Position numbers and translations under genes: made by a program. The notes below the pieces were generated by a model. The model was given only the letters and a program-made list of their open reading frames with translations, was not told where the DNA came from and ran no database searches. A DNA stretch of 35,044 nucleotides from a virus. Location of the stretch: the IMG/VR virus record IMGVR_UViG_3300028007_000006, positions 1-35,044 of that record; one strand, given 5' to 3'. Shown piece by piece: positions 1,459 to 35,044 of this stretch (its first letter is position 1; the number at the start of each line of letters is the position of its first letter).

Positions 1459-1677
1459 ATGGACACCAGCACCCCCGCGCTCTGGGAAAAGATGCGTGCA
1501 CTGGCGGCATCGGGGCACGACCGCGCTGAAGAACTTACGAAGCAGGCCGACGAGTTGGAACAAAAGACGAGCGGCTACTACGCCGATCCACCGACCGTCG
1601 AAGTCAAGTCGTTCGTTGGCGCTTGGGCCCGGGCAAAGCGCACCTGGAGCGAATGCACCGGGGAGCCCCTACTATGA
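1459..1677 (+). CDS. Hypothetical 72-aa protein
   Basis: I do not recognise this family. It starts 4 bases after the ParB-like stop, with GGAGGG at 1445-1450 as ribosome binding site, and its stop overlaps the start of the ASCH-like gene. The protein is charged, with an N-terminal helix containing EELTKQADELEQK followed by YYADPPTVEVKSFVGAWARAKRTW. No transmembrane segment or metal motif is seen. Its place in the tightly packed early operon supports it being a real gene. Confidence 0.65.
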   Translation: MDTSTPALWEKMRALAASGHDRAEELTKQADELEQKTSGYYADPPTVEVKSFVGAWARAKRTWSECTGEPLL

Positions 1678-2261
1678 TCCTACCCATTTCGATCCGCGAG
1701 CCCGAGATCGGCGCGTTGATGCACGGCGACATGGCCGCGCTGATCCGCCCGCTCGGCCGCCTCGCCGTGCTGAAGAAGTTCGACCTGCTGTGGGTGCGCG
1801 AGCCCTTCTATATCCCGCGTGCCTTCGCGCACCGCGCGCCGACGAGCGCTGCGGCCGATGCCGCCTGCCGCCCGGTCTTCGCGGCCGATCACAGCATCGC
1901 CTGGTTCGCCGCTAACAGCGGACAATTCGGCCAGCGGCGTCACGCGCGCGAACTACCCAAGGCGTGGCACCGCGCGCACCTGCGGATCCTCGCTGTCGAG
2001 CAGCTGCCGTTGCACGACGTCGACGATGTCGACCTGGCGAGGGCTGGCTGGGCCAGCCGCGACGCGTTCGTCAAGCGCTGGAACCAGGACGCCGAATTCG
2101 ACAAATATCGCGCCAGCCCATCGGTCCGCTACGCGGCCAACCCGGTCGTGCTGCGCATCGCCTTCCGCCGCATCGACGGCCAGCTTCCCGACTACAAGCC
2201 GACCGCGGGCCGCGTCCAACCCCGGGCGCAGTCACGCCTGTCGGCCGAGGCGCGGCCATGA
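1674..2261 (+). CDS. ASCH-like domain phage protein
   Basis: ATG at 1674 overlaps the previous stop, giving 195 residues. The order of elements fits the ASCH/PUA-like fold: MILPISIREPEIGALMHGD near the start, LLWVREPFYIP around residues 40-50, AHLRILAVEQLPLHDVDDVD around 110-130, and a terminal strand NPVVLRIAFRRI. ASCH proteins bind RNA or nucleosides, and phage versions are usually of unknown target. The HDVDDVDLARAGW segment followed by FVKRWNQ matches the usual arrangement in phage members. About 25 C-terminal residues are low-complexity. The assignment is by pattern only. Confidence 0.55.
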   Translation: MILPISIREPEIGALMHGDMAALIRPLGRLAVLKKFDLLWVREPFYIPRAFAHRAPTSAAADAACRPVFAADHSIAWFAANSGQFGQRRHARELPKAWHRAHLRILAVEQLPLHDVDDVDLARAGWASRDAFVKRWNQDAEFDKYRASPSVRYAANPVVLRIAFRRIDGQLPDYKPTAGRVQPRAQSRLSAEARP

Positions 2262-2386
2262 CCTGGTGGCGCCGCTTCTGCAGCGTCATGCGCTGGCTCT
2301 TCGCGTCCCCGCCGACGTGCTTCCGGTCCGATTGCACCGCGGAGCATCTGTGCGACGACTGCGTCGATTTCTGGAGCATCAAATGA
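2258..2386 (+). CDS. 42-aa four-cysteine microprotein, copy 1
   Basis: The protein starts MTWWRRFCSVMRWLFASPP and continues to a C-x4-C-x5-C-x2-C cluster (TCFRSDCTAEHLCDDC), ending VDFWSIK. ATG at 2258 overlaps the ASCH-like stop and its own TGA overlaps the J-domain start. The N-terminal helix is hydrophobic and Trp/Arg-rich, suggesting membrane or partner contact. The four cysteines are spaced like a small zinc knuckle. A clear paralogue of identical length is on the other strand at 32171-32299. No known family was recognised. Confidence 0.75.
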   Translation: MTWWRRFCSVMRWLFASPPTCFRSDCTAEHLCDDCVDFWSIK

Positions 2387-2973
2387 CCGTCGATCGGCGC
2401 TTTCCCCTGCACTGGCCGGACGGCTGGCCGCGCACTCCGCTGGGCCTGCGCAAGACGGCGCCCTTCAAGGTAACCGCCGCCAAGGCGCGCGACGAGATGT
2501 TGCGCGAGCTGCAGCTGCTCGGCGCGAAACGCATCATCATCTCGTCGAACAACCCCCGCAACCGCGACGGATCGCTGTCGGTTGCCCGGCAGCGTATCGA
2601 TGACACGGGCGTAGCGGTCTATTTCCTACGCAAGGGCGCCGACGTCGTGATCGCCTGCGACCAGTACGCCGATCTCCACGCGAACATGCGCGCGATCGGC
2701 AAGACCGTCGAGGCGTTGCGCGGGATCGAGCGCTGGGGCGCCTCGGATCTCCTCGATCGCGCCTTCACCGGCTTCGCGGCGCTCCCGGCTCCCGAACAAT
2801 GGTGGCAGGTACTCGGGGTGGCAGCGAGCGCGACGTTGGCCGAGATCGACGCTGCATGGCGCGACAAGATGCGCAGGGCGCACCCCGACAGGCCCGGCGG
2901 AAGCGACGCCGAAGCCTCCCGCCTCAACCGCGCCCGCGATGACGGCCGTAAAGCTCGAGGACAGAACGCATGA
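2383..2973 (+). CDS. J-domain (DnaJ-like) phage protein
   Basis: ATG at 2383 overlaps the preceding TGA. The protein has 196 residues. Residues 140-185 form a J domain: WWQVLGVAASATLAEIDAAWRD, then the invariant HPD tripeptide at 167-169 and a Gly-rich turn. The N-terminal 130 residues are a separate domain (AKRIIISSNNPRNRDGS, GVAVYFLRK) common in phage J proteins and not otherwise assigned. J proteins recruit and stimulate the host Hsp70. In an early operon this suggests remodelling of replication complexes, which is inference. The stop overlaps the AlpA-type gene. Confidence 0.8.
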   Translation: MTVDRRFPLHWPDGWPRTPLGLRKTAPFKVTAAKARDEMLRELQLLGAKRIIISSNNPRNRDGSLSVARQRIDDTGVAVYFLRKGADVVIACDQYADLHANMRAIGKTVEALRGIERWGASDLLDRAFTGFAALPAPEQWWQVLGVAASATLAEIDAAWRDKMRRAHPDRPGGSDAEASRLNRARDDGRKARGQNA

Positions 2974-3173
2974 CCCGGCCCCGCTTGCCCGCCGGCTATA
3001 TCAACATCCACGAGGTGAGCGCCTTCACCACTTGGAGCCGCGCCACTATCTGGCGCCGCGTCAAGGACGGCGACTTCCCGCGGCCACACATCCTCGGCCC
3101 CCAGAAGCGGGGCTGGGACGTCGACGAAGTCGCCGCCTGGAAGGCCAGCCGCCAGCCCACCGCCACCAACTAA
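2970..3173 (+). CDS. AlpA-family helix-turn-helix regulator / excisionase-like
   Basis: 67 residues, ATGA overlap with the J-domain gene. The sequence INIHEVSAFTTWSRATIWRRVKDGDFPRP followed by GWDVDEVAAWKASR is the MerR-like winged helix of AlpA, in which the first helix pair reads the groove and the wing follows. AlpA proteins activate integrase expression or serve as directionality factors. It is the last gene before the terminator and lies about 270 bp ahead of an integrase, which fits control of excision. Confidence 0.85.
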   Translation: MTRPRLPAGYINIHEVSAFTTWSRATIWRRVKDGDFPRPHILGPQKRGWDVDEVAAWKASRQPTATN

Positions 3174-3443: not shown

Positions 3444-4664
3444 TTGCTGACCGATCTCGCCTGCAGGAAGGCGCAGCCGGCGGCGCGCGACTACAAGCTG
3501 ACCGACGGCGGCAGCCTCTTTCTGCTGGTGACGACCAAGGGCGCCAAGTCCTGGCGCTGGAAATATCGCTTCGGCGGGAAGACCAAGCAGCTGGTGATCG
3601 GCCGCTATCCGGCGGTGTCGATCGGCGCAGCGCGCAAGGCGCGCGACGAGGCGCGGGCGCTGGTCGACAAGGGAATCGATCCGGGCATCGCGAAGCAGCA
3701 GGCCAAGGCGCGCGCAGCGACCGCGGCGCTGGACAGCTTCGAAGCGATCGCCCGCGCCTGGCACACGGTTCGCAAGCAGACGCTGGCGAAGCGCTATGGC
3801 GGGCAGGTGCTCGATCGGCTCGAGGCCGACGTCTTCCCCCAGTTCGGCAGCTTGCCGATCGGCGAGATCACGCCCCCGATCGTGCTCGCGGCGATTCGCA
3901 GGATAGAGGCCCGCGGCTCCACGGAAATGGCACACCGCGTCCGCATGCATATTTCGGACGTCTTCGTCTGGGCGATCGCCTCGGGGCTGGCGGAGAACGA
4001 CCCGGCGGCGATCATCCGCAAGGCGCTGGTACCGACGAGCGGCAAGCTGCGCCCGGCGCTGATCCGCATCGAGGAAGCGCGCGCCATGCTGGCGGCGAGC
4101 GAGAAGGTCGAGGGCGCCTGGTGGGCCACGCGCGAGGCGTCGAAGCTGCTGGCGCTGACGGCCGCGCGCCCGGGCGTGGTGCGGCTGGCCGAGAAGAAGG
4201 AATTCGAGGGGCTCGGCGGCCCGTCGCCGATCTGGCGCATCCCGGCCGAGAAGATGAAGCTGACGCGCGAGCGCAAGCGCGATGCGAGTTTCGAGTTCGT
4301 CATTCCGCTGTCGCGCCAGGCGGCGGCCGTCGCGGCCGCGGCGATCGCGCGCAGCCCCAGCCCCGATTGGCTCTTCCCCGGCGCCGCAGGCTGGAAGAAA
4401 CCGATCAGCGATTCGACGCTGTCGAAACATTATCGCGATGCGAAGTATCGGGATCGGCATGTCCCGCACGGCTGGCGGGCCAGCTTCTCGACGATCATGA
4501 ACGAACGCGCGGGCGCCGAAGGCAGCAAGGACGATCGCGAGATCATCGAGCTGATGCTCGCGCATGTCCAGGAGGGCGTCGAGGCGTCCTACAATCGCGC
4601 GCTCTATCTGCCCCGCCGGCGCGAGCTGGCGCAGATCTGGGCGGACATGCTGATGCCCGACTGA
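3444..4664 (+). CDS. int: Tyrosine recombinase / integrase 1 (DUF4102 + catalytic domain)
   Basis: 406 residues. The N-terminal DUF4102 arm-binding domain spans about 1-90 (LTDLACRKAQPAARDYKLTD, SWRWKYRFGGK, LGRYP-like IGRYPAVSI). A SAM-like core-binding domain covers about 95-200, and the catalytic domain follows. The visible catalytic set is R242 (TAARPG), H342-x-x-R345 (HGWRAS), H374 and nucleophile Y383 (ASYNR). The Glu usually following RPG is Val here. The only start between the upstream stop at 3396 and the conserved LTD motif is TTG 3444, with AGGG close by. It should integrate or excise the element, with AlpA upstream as likely partner. It is similar in length and motifs to integrase 2. 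Confidence 0.9.
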   Translation: MLTDLACRKAQPAARDYKLTDGGSLFLLVTTKGAKSWRWKYRFGGKTKQLVIGRYPAVSIGAARKARDEARALVDKGIDPGIAKQQAKARAATAALDSFEAIARAWHTVRKQTLAKRYGGQVLDRLEADVFPQFGSLPIGEITPPIVLAAIRRIEARGSTEMAHRVRMHISDVFVWAIASGLAENDPAAIIRKALVPTSGKLRPALIRIEEARAMLAASEKVEGAWWATREASKLLALTAARPGVVRLAEKKEFEGLGGPSPIWRIPAEKMKLTRERKRDASFEFVIPLSRQAAAVAAAAIARSPSPDWLFPGAAGWKKPISDSTLSKHYRDAKYRDRHVPHGWRASFSTIMNERAGAEGSKDDREIIELMLAHVQEGVEASYNRALYLPRRRELAQIWADMLMPD

Positions 4665-31245: not shown

Positions 31246-31584
31246 CTAATCCGCAGGCGCAAAGTCCCTCCAACCGATCGGCTCGCCGTCGATCAGCGCG
31301 ACCGAGATCGTCACCCCGCCGTCCGGCGCCGCCTCGATCGACGCCGTCGCGCTCTTGCCTTCGTCGACCAGCGCGCCGCGCAACCAATTGTCGCGCGGGA
31401 CATAGCCCAGCGTTCGCGCATCGCCGTCGACCACGGCGATCGCGTCGGCATCATGGGGATTGCCCAGCTCGCGCAGCAGCGTCACCGGATCGCCCGCCAC
31501 CGCCTGGCCGACGGCGTCGGCATAGCTGCGCGTGCCGGCGAGGCGGACGGGATAGAACTTCAGGGGCTTGGGCATCGGGCGCAT
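31246..31584 (-). CDS. HIRAN domain protein
   Basis: 112 residues from ATG 31584; a GTG at 31623 (inside the operator) and an ATG at 31575 are alternatives, none with a good ribosome site. FYPVRLAGTRSYADAVGQAV, LLRELGNPHDADAIAVVDG and LGYVPRDNW are the core of the HIRAN fold, which binds 3' single-stranded DNA ends or stalled forks when joined to helicases. A stand-alone HIRAN protein in a lysogeny region could sense replication or repair intermediates. That role is inference. Confidence 0.75.
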   Translation of the reverse strand: MRPMPKPLKFYPVRLAGTRSYADAVGQAVAGDPVTLLRELGNPHDADAIAVVDGDARTLGYVPRDNWLRGALVDEGKSATASIEAAPDGGVTISVALIDGEPIGWRDFAPAD

Positions 31585-31604
31585 ATTTACGGCGGGAACA
31601 CATA

Positions 31605-31630
31605 ATTTAATGTGACCTTTCACATTAAAT
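31605..31630. promoter_or_regulatory. Perfect 11-bp inverted repeat, AT-rich operator
   Basis: ATTTAATGTGA, 4-nt spacer CCTT, TCACATTAAAT. The half-site contains TGTGA as in CRP-type sites, but the spacing is 4 rather than 6. It lies between the membrane-protein gene and the HIRAN gene, so a phage or host regulator probably controls HIRAN from here. Confidence 0.65.
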
Positions 31631-31647: not shown

Positions 31648-32106
31648 TCAGTCGCGCTTCGCGAAGGATCCCATGATCGCACCTGCAGCCGCCGCGATCA
31701 GGCCCATGATCATCGCGGCGACGCTGCCGCCGAGCGCCAGGCCCTTTCGAAATAGAAGGTCGATATTTACGATCTCGGACGTGGCTTCGCCACCGAGCGC
31801 CGCAGGCACGACGATGCCGAGGGTGGTTTTTAGGTTCAGGCTGAGGACGAGGGCAACGACGCCGGCTCCGAAAAGCAGCCAGCCGAACAGCCGCCAATTT
31901 TCGCCGTCGGATTTTCTGGCAGGCTGCCCCATTGATGCAGCCTGCCGATCGTCGTGGGTAGTCAGATCAAGATCGACCTTCTCGCCGGACTCCCGCTGTG
32001 CTCGCGCCAACGCCCGCGCCTCGTCTCCGCTGACGGTCACAATGACGGCAGTTACGGAGACGCCGGCGAGCGCCAAGACGAACCAAAACCAAAAAACATC
32101 GCTCAT
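31648..32106 (-). CDS. Three-helix membrane protein of the immunity region
   Basis: 152 residues. Hydrophobic helices at about 5-25, 72-92 and 122-146, with a charged cytoplasmic or periplasmic loop (28-70, RALARAQRESGEKVDLDL) between the first two. No enzyme motif. Membrane proteins next to a phage repressor often mediate superinfection exclusion, which is a reasonable but unproven guess here. Confidence 0.65.
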   Translation of the reverse strand: MSDVFWFWFVLALAGVSVTAVIVTVSGDEARALARAQRESGEKVDLDLTTHDDRQAASMGQPARKSDGENWRLFGWLLFGAGVVALVLSLNLKTTLGIVVPAALGGEATSEIVNIDLLFRKGLALGGSVAAMIMGLIAAAAGAIMGSFAKRD

Positions 32107-32170: not shown

Positions 32171-32299
32171 TCATTTGATGCTCCAGAATGCGGCGCAATC
32201 GTCGCACAGATGAGCCTTGGTGCAGTCTGCGCGGCTGCAGGTAGGCGTGGTGGCGAAGATCCAGCGCAGCAGGCCAGCGACGCGTGCCCACCAGTTCAT
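32171..32299 (-). CDS. 42-aa four-cysteine microprotein, copy 2
   Basis: ATG 32299 to TGA 32171. MNWWARVAGLLRWIFATTPT, then the cluster TCSRADCTKAHLCDDC with the same C-x4-C-x5-C-x2-C spacing as copy 1, and AAFWSIK at the end. 42 residues in both, with the same first, central and last motifs (WW, RW-F, HLCDDC, FWSIK). The two genes lie on opposite strands about 5 kb apart if the molecule is circular. It sits between the membrane protein and the repressor, so it is likely expressed in the lysogen. Confidence 0.75.
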   Translation of the reverse strand: MNWWARVAGLLRWIFATTPTCSRADCTKAHLCDDCAAFWSIK

Positions 32300-32404
32300 G
32301 ACCGCACCTGACCCGTCTCCATGCTGGAAAAAAACCACATGACGAAGGCCGAAGCCGCAATTAACGGCAGGGCGCGCCTAGAAAAATCGTTCACCAAGCC
32401 CTCC

Positions 32405-32830
32405 TCAGGCTGCTTCCCCTTTGCTCATATCTTTGCCCGCAAAAGACCGCGAAGGCGAATGAAGAGTCGCCGACGCGGTCGATGCCTGATCCGCGGGGAT
32501 CGAGGCTTCTCCGGATAGTGACCTCATCAGTTGGCGAATCGTCTCCCGGTCGCGACTCGACAGCCGCTGCAGCATCGCCAGATCGTCCCGGTCCTGAGAA
32601 GTCATTGCATCGTCGGGTTGATCGCTCGTCGGATCGTCGGTTTCGCCGGTCAGGTAGGCGGGCGTCGTCTGGAGCTCGCGGGCGATAACGTGAAGCTTGG
32701 TCGATCCCTTTTTTCCCCGATGAATCAAATTGAAGATCGTCGGCTGCGACAGTTTCACGCGCCGCGCCAACTCGGCCTGCGACAAGCCCAGAAGCGCCAT
32801 CCGCTCCAAAATCCGCGATCCGATGATCAT
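32405..32830 (-). CDS. CI-like repressor, XRE family, without protease domain
   Basis: 141 residues from ATG 32830 (AGGATGG upstream). Residues 1-65 are an XRE helix-turn-helix: ERMALLGLSQAELARRVKLS, QPTIFNLIHRGKKGS, then LTGETDDP. The rest is a charged, largely disordered tail with no S24 autocleavage domain, so induction must occur by another route than RecA-stimulated cleavage. It is divergent from the Cro-like gene across two matching operators. Confidence 0.8.
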   Translation of the reverse strand: MIIGSRILERMALLGLSQAELARRVKLSQPTIFNLIHRGKKGSTKLHVIARELQTTPAYLTGETDDPTSDQPDDAMTSQDRDDLAMLQRLSSRDRETIRQLMRSLSGEASIPADQASTASATLHSPSRSFAGKDMSKGEAA

Positions 32831-32841
32831 TGGGCGCCATC

Positions 32842-32859
32842 CTATAGATTCGCCTATTG
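32842..32859. promoter_or_regulatory. Operator 1 between repressor and Cro-like gene
   Basis: CTATAG-ATTCGC-CTATTG. The right half matches the operator at 32890 exactly, and the left half differs by one base from the symmetric CAATAG. It is 12 bp from the repressor start, so it would autoregulate the repressor. Confidence 0.7.
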
Positions 32860-32889
32860 CGTTCGATGAAGATCGTGATAAGACTCGCA

Positions 32890-32907
32890 CAATAGCTAAA
32901 TCTATTG
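32890..32907. promoter_or_regulatory. Operator 2, perfect 6-bp palindromic halves
   Basis: CAATAG, spacer CTAAAT, CTATTG. It lies 11 bp upstream of the Cro-like ATG and 30 bp from operator 1, so it would block the early promoter when occupied. Confidence 0.75.
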
Positions 32908-32918
32908 GCCGAGATTCG

Positions 32919-33248
32919 ATGTCCACTGTCGCCACCCTTTCTACCCCGCTCGACGCGCTGAAGCGCGCGATCGCGGCTGCGGGGGGTCAGGCAGCGCTCG
33001 CTCGGGCGTGCGGCGTAAAGCAGCCCACCGTCTGGAACTGGCTTCACAATATCGGTCATGTCCCCGCCGCCGAGCACGTCCTGAAGGTCGAAGCCGCCAC
33101 GGGCGTATCGAAGCATGATCTGCGCCCGGACATCTATCCGCGCGACGCCGCGGTCCCGCATACCGGCGTTGCCACGGTCGGCGCGGGAGGTTCCTCAATT
33201 CCCCCCTCCCGCGCCGAAACCGACCCCATGTCGGGGCTGAACCCCTGA
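32919..33248 (+). CDS. Cro/YdaS-like early repressor
   Basis: 109 residues from ATG 32919. PLDALKRAIAAAGGQAALARACGVKQPTVWNWLHN is the YdaS/Cro-type helix-turn-helix, followed by PAAEHVLKVEAATGVSKHDLRPDIYP. The C-terminal 35 residues are disordered. It begins the rightward early operon and should compete with the repressor for the two operators. No strong ribosome site precedes it, so the message may be leaderless or weakly translated. Confidence 0.82.
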   Translation: MSTVATLSTPLDALKRAIAAAGGQAALARACGVKQPTVWNWLHNIGHVPAAEHVLKVEAATGVSKHDLRPDIYPRDAAVPHTGVATVGAGGSSIPPSRAETDPMSGLNP

Positions 33249-33532
33249 TGCCCGCGCCTGTCACCCCTGCCGCGCCCCTTTCGCCCACCGGCGCTAGCGG
33301 GTCCGCCGCCGCCGGTCCCTTGCCGTCGGCCGCCACATTGGCCAGCCGCGAGTTCTGCGGTGGCTGGGCCGACCGTCGGCTGAGCGAGGCCTATGAGCTG
33401 ATCGACGCCGTGCTGCGTGACAATGAAGACGCCCCCGGCGGCGATGTGCGCGCCGACCTGTTCAAGGCACGCGCTGCTGTCGAAGATGCGGACGTGACGC
33501 TCGCGGCCGAGCGAAAGACGGCCGCGTCATGA
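33248..33532 (+). CDS. Hypothetical protein, 94 aa
   Basis: TGATG overlap with the Cro-like gene. The first 35 residues are Ala/Pro/Gly-rich. Then REFCGGWADRRLSEAYELID and ADLFKARAAVEDADVTLAAE form helices. No named family. Its stop overlaps the CII-like start, so all three early genes are coupled. Confidence 0.6.
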   Translation: MPAPVTPAAPLSPTGASGSAAAGPLPSAATLASREFCGGWADRRLSEAYELIDAVLRDNEDAPGGDVRADLFKARAAVEDADVTLAAERKTAAS

Positions 33533-34038
33533 CCAAGCCCCGCGCGCCCCTTTCGATCGAAGATGCGATCATCCGGATCGCCGCGCAGGTCGATGGCGGC
33601 TTCGAAGCCATGGCGCCCGTCGTCGGCCGCGAACCGCGCACCGTGCGCAACTGGAGCGATCCCGACACCCCCGAACAGGTGCCCGTCGACTGCGCGATCG
33701 CGCTCGACCTCGCCCATATCGCCGCCGGCGGCACCGGCGCGCCGATCTTCGAGGCCTATGCGCTGAAGCTCGAGCTCGCCGACGCCGCGAAGTTCGGCGA
33801 TCGCCACCAGCTGCTCCGCCACGCGCAGGAGCTCGCCAAGGAAACCGGCGAAGCCAACGCCGCGATCATCGGCGCCGCCCACCCCGCCGCCAGCGCCGCC
33901 GATCGGCAGATCGCGCTCAAGGAAGCGACCGAGGCGCGCGCCAAACTCGACGAAGTCATTCCGCTGCTCGCGGCCGACGGCGATCGCTTGCCGATCGGCG
34001 CGACCAAAGCGCCACCGCCCAACGAGCAGCCACCCTGA
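33529..34038 (+). CDS. CII-like phage regulatory protein
   Basis: 169 residues. The pattern DAIIRIAAQVDGGFEAMAPVVGREPRTVRNWSDPDTPEQVPVDCAIALDLAH is that of the phage CII/CP76 regulatory family, with helix-turn-helix in the central GREPRTVRNWSD. These proteins influence lysogeny decisions by activating repressor or integrase promoters. The C-terminal half is helical (ELAKETGEANAAII) and ends in a Pro-rich tail. Confidence 0.8.
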   Translation: MTKPRAPLSIEDAIIRIAAQVDGGFEAMAPVVGREPRTVRNWSDPDTPEQVPVDCAIALDLAHIAAGGTGAPIFEAYALKLELADAAKFGDRHQLLRHAQELAKETGEANAAIIGAAHPAASAADRQIALKEATEARAKLDEVIPLLAADGDRLPIGATKAPPPNEQPP

Positions 34039-34123
34039 TCGCTTCCCCGCGCGCGCCTTGCGACCGTTTGCGCGCGTGGATGCCTGGGGGCCGGTCGCGT
34101 CGGTTTTTATCGGATTGGCCCGC

Positions 34124-34141
34124 GGGGCCGGCCCCTTTTTT
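34124..34141 (+). terminator. Intrinsic terminator within the early operon
   Basis: GGGG, loop CCGG, CCCC, then T6 at 34136-34141. Its location after the CII-like gene recalls the early terminators that are overcome by an antiterminator. Confidence 0.65.
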
Positions 34142-34170
34142 CTTCCACCACCGCCCGCCGATCGCACTCG

Positions 34171-34203
34171 CTTTCGGCAGCGGTTTCTTGCTGCCGCCGA
34201 AAG
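34171..34203 (+). promoter_or_regulatory. Hairpin overlapping the ribosome site of the 34213 gene
   Basis: CTTTCGG (34171-34177) pairs with CCGAAAG (34197-34203) and CAGC (34178-34181) with GCTG (34190-34193), leaving a 3-base bulge. AAAGGA of the ribosome site (34200-34205) is partly inside the stem, which could restrain translation. Confidence 0.55.
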
Positions 34204-34212
34204 GACTGCCCG

Positions 34213-34701
34213 ATGTCACAGGACCGGCCCAAGCCTTCACCCCTCGAACCCGTCCCCGCTCCCGGCGCTTATCTAGCGCGCCGCCGCGCCGTCGCCGGCC
34301 TCAACCGCGTCCAGGTCGCGCAGCAGCTCGCCGTCATGCCGTGGATGCTCCTCGAGGCAAACGCCGACGACGTCGCGCGCCTCGCCGATCGGCTGTTTGC
34401 CGCCGAGCGCAACGGCAAGCATTTCAGCGCCGAGCAGGCCCCGCTTCTGCGCGACATCTTCCCCTTCGACGTCGACGTCTATCGGCAGCTGATCGCCATC
34501 GAGGCCGCGGGCCCGGACCACGGTCTGGCGGTGCCGCAGATCTGCGTCGACTGCGCCTGCAGCTGGCACGACCCGTGCGAGGTCGACGTCGACGGCGGCA
34601 TGGACACCACCACCTGCGCCTGGTCGGCCGACCCCACCCGCTGCACCGCCTGCGCCCCGGCCCAGGCGGGTGCGCTCGGCGCCATGGAGCTGCTCTCGTG
34701 A
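34213..34701 (+). CDS. HTH-like protein with a C-terminal cysteine cluster
   Basis: 162 residues, AAAGGA 7 bp before ATG. Residues 18-60 (AYLARRRAVAGLNRVQVAQQL) look like an XRE-type helix-turn-helix. The C-terminal part has six cysteines (CVDCACSWHDPCEVD, then CAWSADPTRCTAC), spaced like a zinc-binding module. It probably binds DNA and may help regulate early transcription. No named family is known to me. Confidence 0.7.
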   Translation: MSQDRPKPSPLEPVPAPGAYLARRRAVAGLNRVQVAQQLAVMPWMLLEANADDVARLADRLFAAERNGKHFSAEQAPLLRDIFPFDVDVYRQLIAIEAAGPDHGLAVPQICVDCACSWHDPCEVDVDGGMDTTTCAWSADPTRCTACAPAQAGALGAMELLS

Positions 34702-35018
34702 GCCCGCTCGGCCTGATGGCGCCCGACGATCTCCGCCGCTCGCTGCGCGAGTTGCTTCTGGGGGGGGGGCTACCGCCGCAGCACGTCGACGAGATCGCGG
34801 ACCTCGCGACGCTCGCCGTGGTCGAGGCGCTGGCGTCGATCGACCGCGTCGGCGCCCGCGCCAGCAGCCAGCCGGCGCAGATGGCGATCGTTTCCGCCGC
34901 CCTGAGCGCCGCGGCCGCGGTCATCGACCTCAACCTGCAGGCGCTGGCTAGCTTCGGACGTTCGCAGGGCACGCGCGTGGTCGAAACCACCGCATCGATG
35001 GGGCTCGGTAAGTCGTGA
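34698..35018 (+). CDS. Hypothetical early protein, 106 aa, with internal poly-G tract
   Basis: GTGA overlap with the preceding gene. LMAPDDLRRSLRELLLGGGL is followed by DEIADLATLAVVEALASIDR and AIVSAALSAAAAVIDLNLQA, two amphipathic helices. The three Gly codons are part of a G10 run. It is in frame here, and a slip would truncate the protein early. No family was recognised. Its 3' end forms half of the terminal inverted repeat. Confidence 0.6.
   Translation: MSPLGLMAPDDLRRSLRELLLGGGLPPQHVDEIADLATLAVVEALASIDRVGARASSQPAQMAIVSAALSAAAAVIDLNLQALASFGRSQGTRVVETTASMGLGKS
34760..34769. repeat. 10-G homopolymer tract inside an early gene
   Basis: Ten G run from the last base of a CTG codon through three GGG codons. 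The frame is intact here, unlike at 736-746. Confidence 0.9.
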
Positions 35019-35044
35019 GCCCCATCGATGCGGTGGTTTCGACC
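34979..35044. repeat. 27-bp perfect inverted repeat at the right edge
   Basis: 34979-35005 is the exact reverse complement of 35018-35044, with a 12-nt spacer. The right arm ends at the last base of the window. It may be an assembly fold-back, a chimeric read or a genuine palindrome. Confidence 0.85.
35015..35044 (+). CDS. N-terminal fragment of an early gene (cut by window edge)
   Basis: GTG at 35015 overlaps the preceding TGA (GTGA) and opens ten codons MSPIDAVVST to the window edge. If the molecule is circular the frame continues into RFDLHARHQALRELVEA at 1-54. The fragment lies within one arm of the inverted repeat, so it may instead be a fold-back copy of the preceding gene. Confidence 0.35.
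   Translation, partial: MSPIDAVVST

What the first reader, a model, noticed from the sequence alone, without database searches (positions are those of the whole stretch)
2258..2386. Duplicated 42-residue four-cysteine microprotein on opposite strands
Copy 1 (2258-2386, early operon) and copy 2 (32171-32299, next to the repressor) are both 42 residues, share WW, RW-F, C-x4-C-x5-C-x2-C, HLCDDC and FWSIK, and diverge elsewhere. One would be made in lytic growth, the other probably in the lysogen. This is consistent with a new family of zinc-knuckle membrane-tethered microproteins, perhaps acting as paired regulators or as immunity and anti-immunity partners.
Basis: partly seen in the sequence, partly recalled or inferred. 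Interest (0 to 1): 0.75.

Follow-up and report, generated by a model that had tools for sequence, protein, structure and literature searches.

The report
Paired phage microproteins flanking immunity region
A temperate phage of (probably) sphingomonad bacteria carries two related 42-residue, probably zinc-binding proteins, one in its lytic operon and one in its repressor operon; both look like real protein genes, no known family matches them, and what they do is not yet known.

Summary
Copy 1 (2258-2386 +) and copy 2 (32171-32299 -) are both 42 aa, 26/42 identical, 97/129 nt identical without gaps, and the similarity stops at the start and stop codons. Both look translated. Copy 1 overlaps genes by ATGA at both ends, copy 2 by ATGA at its start. 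dN/dS is about 0.4, and neutral drift rarely keeps every Cys and Trp. A colinear related prophage shows that the window is cut open inside the early operon, so the copies probably lie about 5 kb apart, pointing outward from the repressor/Cro switch.

No close homologue was found in the phage, plasmid or IMG/VR collections, in 401 sphingomonad genomes, or in Pfam, PHROGs or NCBIfam. One distant relative (43 aa) sits in the same early operon of a related prophage; a further related ORF lies elsewhere on that host's chromosome.

'Membrane-tethered' is plausible but unproven. Immunity/anti-immunity has no positive evidence beyond position. Best reading: a new orphan family of helix plus Cys4 microproteins, an accessory factor supplied in both lytic and lysogenic programmes. 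Existence as genes is well supported; function is inferred.

The parts
2258..2386 (+). copy 1 microprotein, 42 aa, MTWWRRFCSVMRWLFASPPTCFRSDCTAEHLCDDCVDFWSIK
   Evidence: ATGA overlap with gene 1674-2261 upstream and with the DnaJ-like gene downstream
32171..32299 (-). copy 2 microprotein, 42 aa, MNWWARVAGLLRWIFATTPTCSRADCTKAHLCDDCAAFWSIK
   Evidence: ATGA overlap with the upstream 32-33 aa ORF
1674..2261 (+). gene upstream of copy 1, phrog_874-like, function unknown; orthologue adjacent to the related microprotein in L022
   Evidence: 33% identity, E=1e-21
2383..2973 (+). DnaJ-like gene (phrog_9210, C-terminal J-domain stretch), starts on the copy 1 stop codon
732..1454 (+). ParB-like / DUF6551 gene of the early operon
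2970..3173 (+). AlpA/excisionase-like gene
3444..4664 (+). tyrosine integrase
32296..32394 (-). 32-33 aa ORF with one hydrophobic, TM-like stretch, between repressor and copy 2
   Evidence: start GTG 32394 or TTG 32397; no family above chance
31648..32106 (-). 152 aa protein with about three hydrophobic stretches, downstream of copy 2
   Evidence: no family
31246..31623 (-). HIRAN-domain protein
32405..32830 (-). CI-type repressor (HTH_3)
32841..32913 (.). operator-like inverted repeats between repressor and Cro/YdaS-like gene
32919..33248 (+). Cro/YdaS-like HTH gene, first gene of the early operon
33529..34038 (+). CII-like regulator

Best explanation
Two paralogous, translated phage genes encode 42-residue proteins made of an N-terminal, Trp/Arg-rich, probably amphipathic helix (about residues 3-15) and a C-terminal Cys4 hairpin that probably binds one zinc ion. 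Shown: two intact, constrained, translation-coupled ORFs in the two divergent operons of the immunity region. Inferred: the helix lies on the inner face of the membrane, and the zinc hairpin with the conserved HLCDDC..FWSIK tail docks onto a host (or phage) protein. The phage supplies the same activity twice: copy 1 from the early lytic operon, copy 2 with two membrane-like proteins from the repressor operon, as an accessory (moron-like) module that modifies the lysogen, for example against superinfecting phages. Divergence in the helix and loops tunes each copy; the conserved tail keeps the common target.
For: Intact paralogues with constraint on Cys and Trp. Gene overlaps at both ends of copy 1 and the start of copy 2. 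Position in the repressor and early operons. Neighbours of copy 2 are membrane-like proteins, and the slot after the repressor is variable and often carries hydrophobic or HIRAN proteins in relatives, as accessory regions do. A distant relative keeps R6, R/K12, W13, C21, R-x-D-C, C-x2-C and the operon position, coupled at both ends. The low-confidence AF2 model gives helix 3-15 and helix 33-40.
Against: Amphipathicity is not above composition-matched shuffles (P=0.09 and 0.23), so membrane binding is unproven. The structure model is poor (pLDDT 59, pTM 0.23). Zinc binding is inferred from cysteine spacing only. No data on expression, target or phenotype. Most related phages lack the family.
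Confidence: 0.4

Rival explanations
1. Soluble nucleic-acid or ribosome-binding microprotein: the cationic Trp/Arg helix and zinc hairpin bind RNA or DNA and serve phage gene expression or replication, in keeping with ParB-like, DnaJ-like and excisionase neighbours.
For: Copy 1 and the L022 relative both lie in the ParB-like / phrog_874-like / DnaJ-like cluster; positive charge in the helix.
Against: Does not explain a second copy between two hydrophobic proteins in the repressor operon; the tail is acidic and aromatic; no nucleic-acid-binding family match.
Confidence: 0.22
2. Immunity and anti-immunity partners: copy 2 supports lysogeny and copy 1 antagonises it, by heterodimerising or competing for the repressor or a shared partner, as P1 Lxc and Coi act on the repressor.
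For: One copy in each divergent operon of the switch; conserved core with divergent surfaces; phage small proteins with such roles exist (PMC11323111).
Against: The related prophage with a similar repressor and early-operon arrangement has only the early copy, and most related phages with this repressor type have neither; no HTH or antirepressor similarity.
Confidence: 0.15
3. Toxin-like membrane-active peptide plus partner: the Trp/Arg helix perturbs the bacterial membrane, and the 32-33 aa hydrophobic ORF or the 152 aa protein controls copy 2.
For: Short Trp/Arg-rich helix and a coupled hydrophobic ORF.
Against: Copy 1 has no such partner; the conserved Cys4 core is not typical of membrane-lytic peptides; no PADLOC, Pfam or NCBIfam match.
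Confidence: 0.08
4. Chance or decaying ORFs: a recent duplication of a short stretch without function.
For: Very few homologues; no codon-usage support for either ORF.
Against: Cys/Trp retention, dN/dS 0.39, no indel or stop, double ATGA coupling and a syntenic relative.
Confidence: 0.04

Closest known systems
43-aa ORF in the early operon of provirus IMGVR_UViG_2887832712_000002 (L022:3298-3429; identical in sphingomonad genome G196)
   Same: Length, first Cys at position 21, R6, K12/W13, R-x-D-C, C-x5-C-x2-C, ATGA coupling at both ends, adjacent to the phrog_874-like gene and close to the DnaJ-like gene
   Different: 24% identity; C-x6-C in place of C-x4-C; no WW, HLCDDC or FWSIK; lies before, not after, the phrog_874-like gene; single copy in the prophage, though a separate chromosomal ORF shares its C-terminal half
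Retroviral-type CCHC zinc knuckle
   Same: Short cysteine-based putative zinc site
   Different: CCHC spacing C-x2-C-x4-H-x4-C absent; ligand set here is most simply C4
P1 Coi/Lxc and other small lysis-lysogeny proteins (PMC11323111)
   Same: Small proteins tied to the lysogeny switch
   Different: Sequence relation not tested; Coi and Lxc are not described there as paralogues; no link of the present proteins to the repressor shown

Membership tests
CCHC zinc knuckle | C-x2-C-x4-H-x4-C spacing | tested here: not met
   Sequence is C-x4-C-x5-C-x2-C with H two residues before the third Cys
Zinc-binding Cys4 microprotein | Four conserved cysteines in both copies and the relative | tested here: met
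   C21, C26, C32, C35 invariant in A2
Zinc-binding Cys4 microprotein | Actual zinc binding | not testable with these tools
   Needs purified protein and metal analysis
Single-pass membrane protein | Uncharged hydrophobic stretch of about 18-20 residues | tested here: not met
   Residues 2-16 carry net +3 (copy 1) or +2 (copy 2), mean hydrophobicity 0.05 and 0.31
Peripheral membrane amphipathic-helix protein | Amphipathic helix | tested here: inconclusive
   Hydrophobic moment 0.56 and 0.41; shuffles reach it in 9% and 23%; AF2 helix 3-15 at low confidence
Any Pfam, PHROGs or NCBIfam family, or PADLOC model | Profile match | tested here: not met
   No match for either copy, with limits of E=1 (Pfam) and E=10 (others)
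Lysogeny regulator / immunity pair | Effect on repressor or switch | not testable with these tools
   Only position is shown

The most novel reading that the evidence does not exclude
The two paralogues are a matched regulator pair, one made in each state of the switch, that compete for one membrane-associated target or for each other, so that their ratio tunes the lysis-lysogeny decision or superinfection immunity.
Probability: 0.1. Interest if true: 0.7.

Novelty: new member of a known kind. Interest (0 to 1): 0.36.

Why it matters
It adds an unannotated, constrained family to phage small proteins. A pair supplied by both arms of one immunity region gives a clean genetic test (delete one, the other, both) of whether phages supply one small effector in both life-cycle programmes or use paralogues as opposing partners. 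It also shows how gene overlap and paralogy can validate very short ORFs that profile libraries and codon-usage scoring miss.

Tried and rejected
Direct searches with the pair gave nothing real: phages, plasmids with copy 2 (95), IMG/VR profile and pattern scans, genome profile scan, whole related virus records, 401 Sphingomonadaceae genomes, genera of two hosts. An IMG/VR scan with the relative's profile returned only the relative itself. Promising-looking hits such as L098 (...CSAQHLCDDSLDFGS) were rejected as chance: short frame without the helix, next to an ORF on the other strand. L262 and L031 small Cys ORFs were judged unrelated or uncertain. PDB profile search gave only chance matches to small disulphide peptides. 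No fold search was run because the AF2 model is too poor. Antisense regulation between copies was rejected: both mRNAs carry the same sense sequence. Rfam and tRNA scans found nothing; no sigma-70-like promoter matched near the switch.

Full report
The observation. Both ORFs are present exactly as described. Copy 1 reads MTWWRRFCSVMRWLFASPPTCFRSDCTAEHLCDDCVDFWSIK and copy 2 MNWWARVAGLLRWIFATTPTCSRADCTKAHLCDDCAAFWSIK. They share 26 of 42 residues and 97 of 129 nucleotides with no gap, and the 60-nt flanks show no resemblance. Copy 1 has a fifth, non-conserved cysteine (C8).

Is it more than chance? Under a neutral simulation with the same number of changes, at least 26 identities are kept in 1.2% of runs, every Cys and Trp in 0.055%, and all conditions together in 0.005%; NG86 dN/dS is 0.39 on few sites. 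The other forward frames are nearly as similar (27 and 24 identities), so raw identity does not choose the frame. Gene overlaps do: copy 1 starts on the stop of gene 1674-2261 and ends on the start of the DnaJ-like gene 2383-2973, and copy 2 starts on the stop of a 32-33 aa hydrophobic ORF. Only 3 of 152 comparable short ORFs in the window overlap at both ends. A codon-usage score gave no support for either ORF on its own, as is common for very short genes (inference).

Setting. The window is a temperate tailed phage: TerL, integrase, AlpA-type excisionase, CI-type repressor, Cro/YdaS-like and CII-like regulators, with operator-like inverted repeats between repressor and Cro. Copy 1 is in the early operon; copy 2 is behind the repressor, with a hydrophobic 32-33 aa ORF upstream and a 152 aa protein with several hydrophobic stretches and a HIRAN protein downstream. 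A related prophage in genome G196 carries repressor, CII and DnaJ-like genes colinearly, with CII and DnaJ about 4.6 kb apart. The window therefore appears to be cut open inside the early operon, and the two copies probably lie about 5 kb apart, pointing outward from the switch, rather than 30 kb apart. The exact joint is uncertain because the last 28 bases are a perfect fold-back of 34979-35006, probably an assembly artefact.

Relatives. Neither copy has a database family or a close homologue in phage, plasmid, IMG/VR or species genome collections, in 77 records of related phages or in 401 sphingomonad genomes. Looking for small Cys ORFs by position found one: L022:3298-3429, 43 aa, MKILSRLIAAAKWAIGQIGACPYGRPDCRPGNRCLQCRQDEIF, ATGA-coupled at both ends, next to the orthologue (33% identity) of gene 1674-2261 and followed by the DnaJ-like gene. 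Alignment puts R6, R/K12, W13, C21, R-x-D-C and C-x2-C in register. It was found by its Cys motif, and an A1-only profile did not report it, so homology is probable, not proven. It also occurs in genome G196, a member of the family sampled around Sphingomonas sp. Root720, which is the basis for the sphingomonad host guess. The same genome has a second ORF away from the prophage whose C-terminal half is 55% identical to it; the 16 kb around that ORF shares no extended similarity with the prophage region. No second member lies in the L022 prophage, its repressor operon included.

Mechanism. Best reading (0.4): a peripheral inner-membrane, zinc-hairpin microprotein that acts on a common target, supplied once in the lytic and once in the lysogenic programme. 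Shown: two constrained, coupled genes in the two divergent operons, and a conserved Cys4 core. Inferred: zinc, membrane contact, target and benefit. The helix has a moderate hydrophobic moment that shuffled versions often reach, and the AF2 model is weak (pLDDT 59). Soluble nucleic-acid binding (0.22) and an immunity/anti-immunity pair (0.15) remain open. Against the pair model, the related prophage keeps a similar switch with only the early-operon member. For comparison, phage P1 uses small proteins Coi and Lxc on opposite sides of its switch (PMC11323111).

Novelty. A new orphan family among phage accessory small proteins; the paired arrangement is unusual but its meaning is untested. It is not a zinc knuckle (spacing tested and not met) and not a single-pass membrane protein by hydrophobicity.

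Noticed in passing
window 34979-35044: The last 28 bases are a perfect reverse complement of 34979-35006 with a 10-nt loop at the very end of the contig; probably a fold-back assembly artefact.
   Followed up: partly
window 32841-35044 and 1-2973: Colinearity with a related prophage (L375) indicates that the record is cut open inside the early operon, so genes near both ends belong together.
   Followed up: partly
L358/L364 1501-1566 region (genome G196): An ORF away from the prophage, next to a transporter-like gene, ends in CQQREGGDPNCQPGNRCSACHREEIF, 55% identical to the L022 phage microprotein C-terminus.
   Followed up: partly
L025:136-309, L029:3079-3219, L003:3062-3274, L007:4546-4746, L031:1834-1977: Early operons of related phages carry many short ORFs with CxxC-type motifs, two of them just upstream of the phrog_874-like gene; a recurrent slot for small Cys proteins.
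   Followed up: no
window 31246-31623 (-): HIRAN-domain protein in the repressor operon, with similar-looking proteins behind the repressor in related phages, and weak similarity to PADLOC PDC-M03B.
   Followed up: no
window 32171-32299 versus 2258-2386: 26 of the 32 differences between the copies are transversions; unexplained, possibly G-C bias or long divergence.
   Followed up: no
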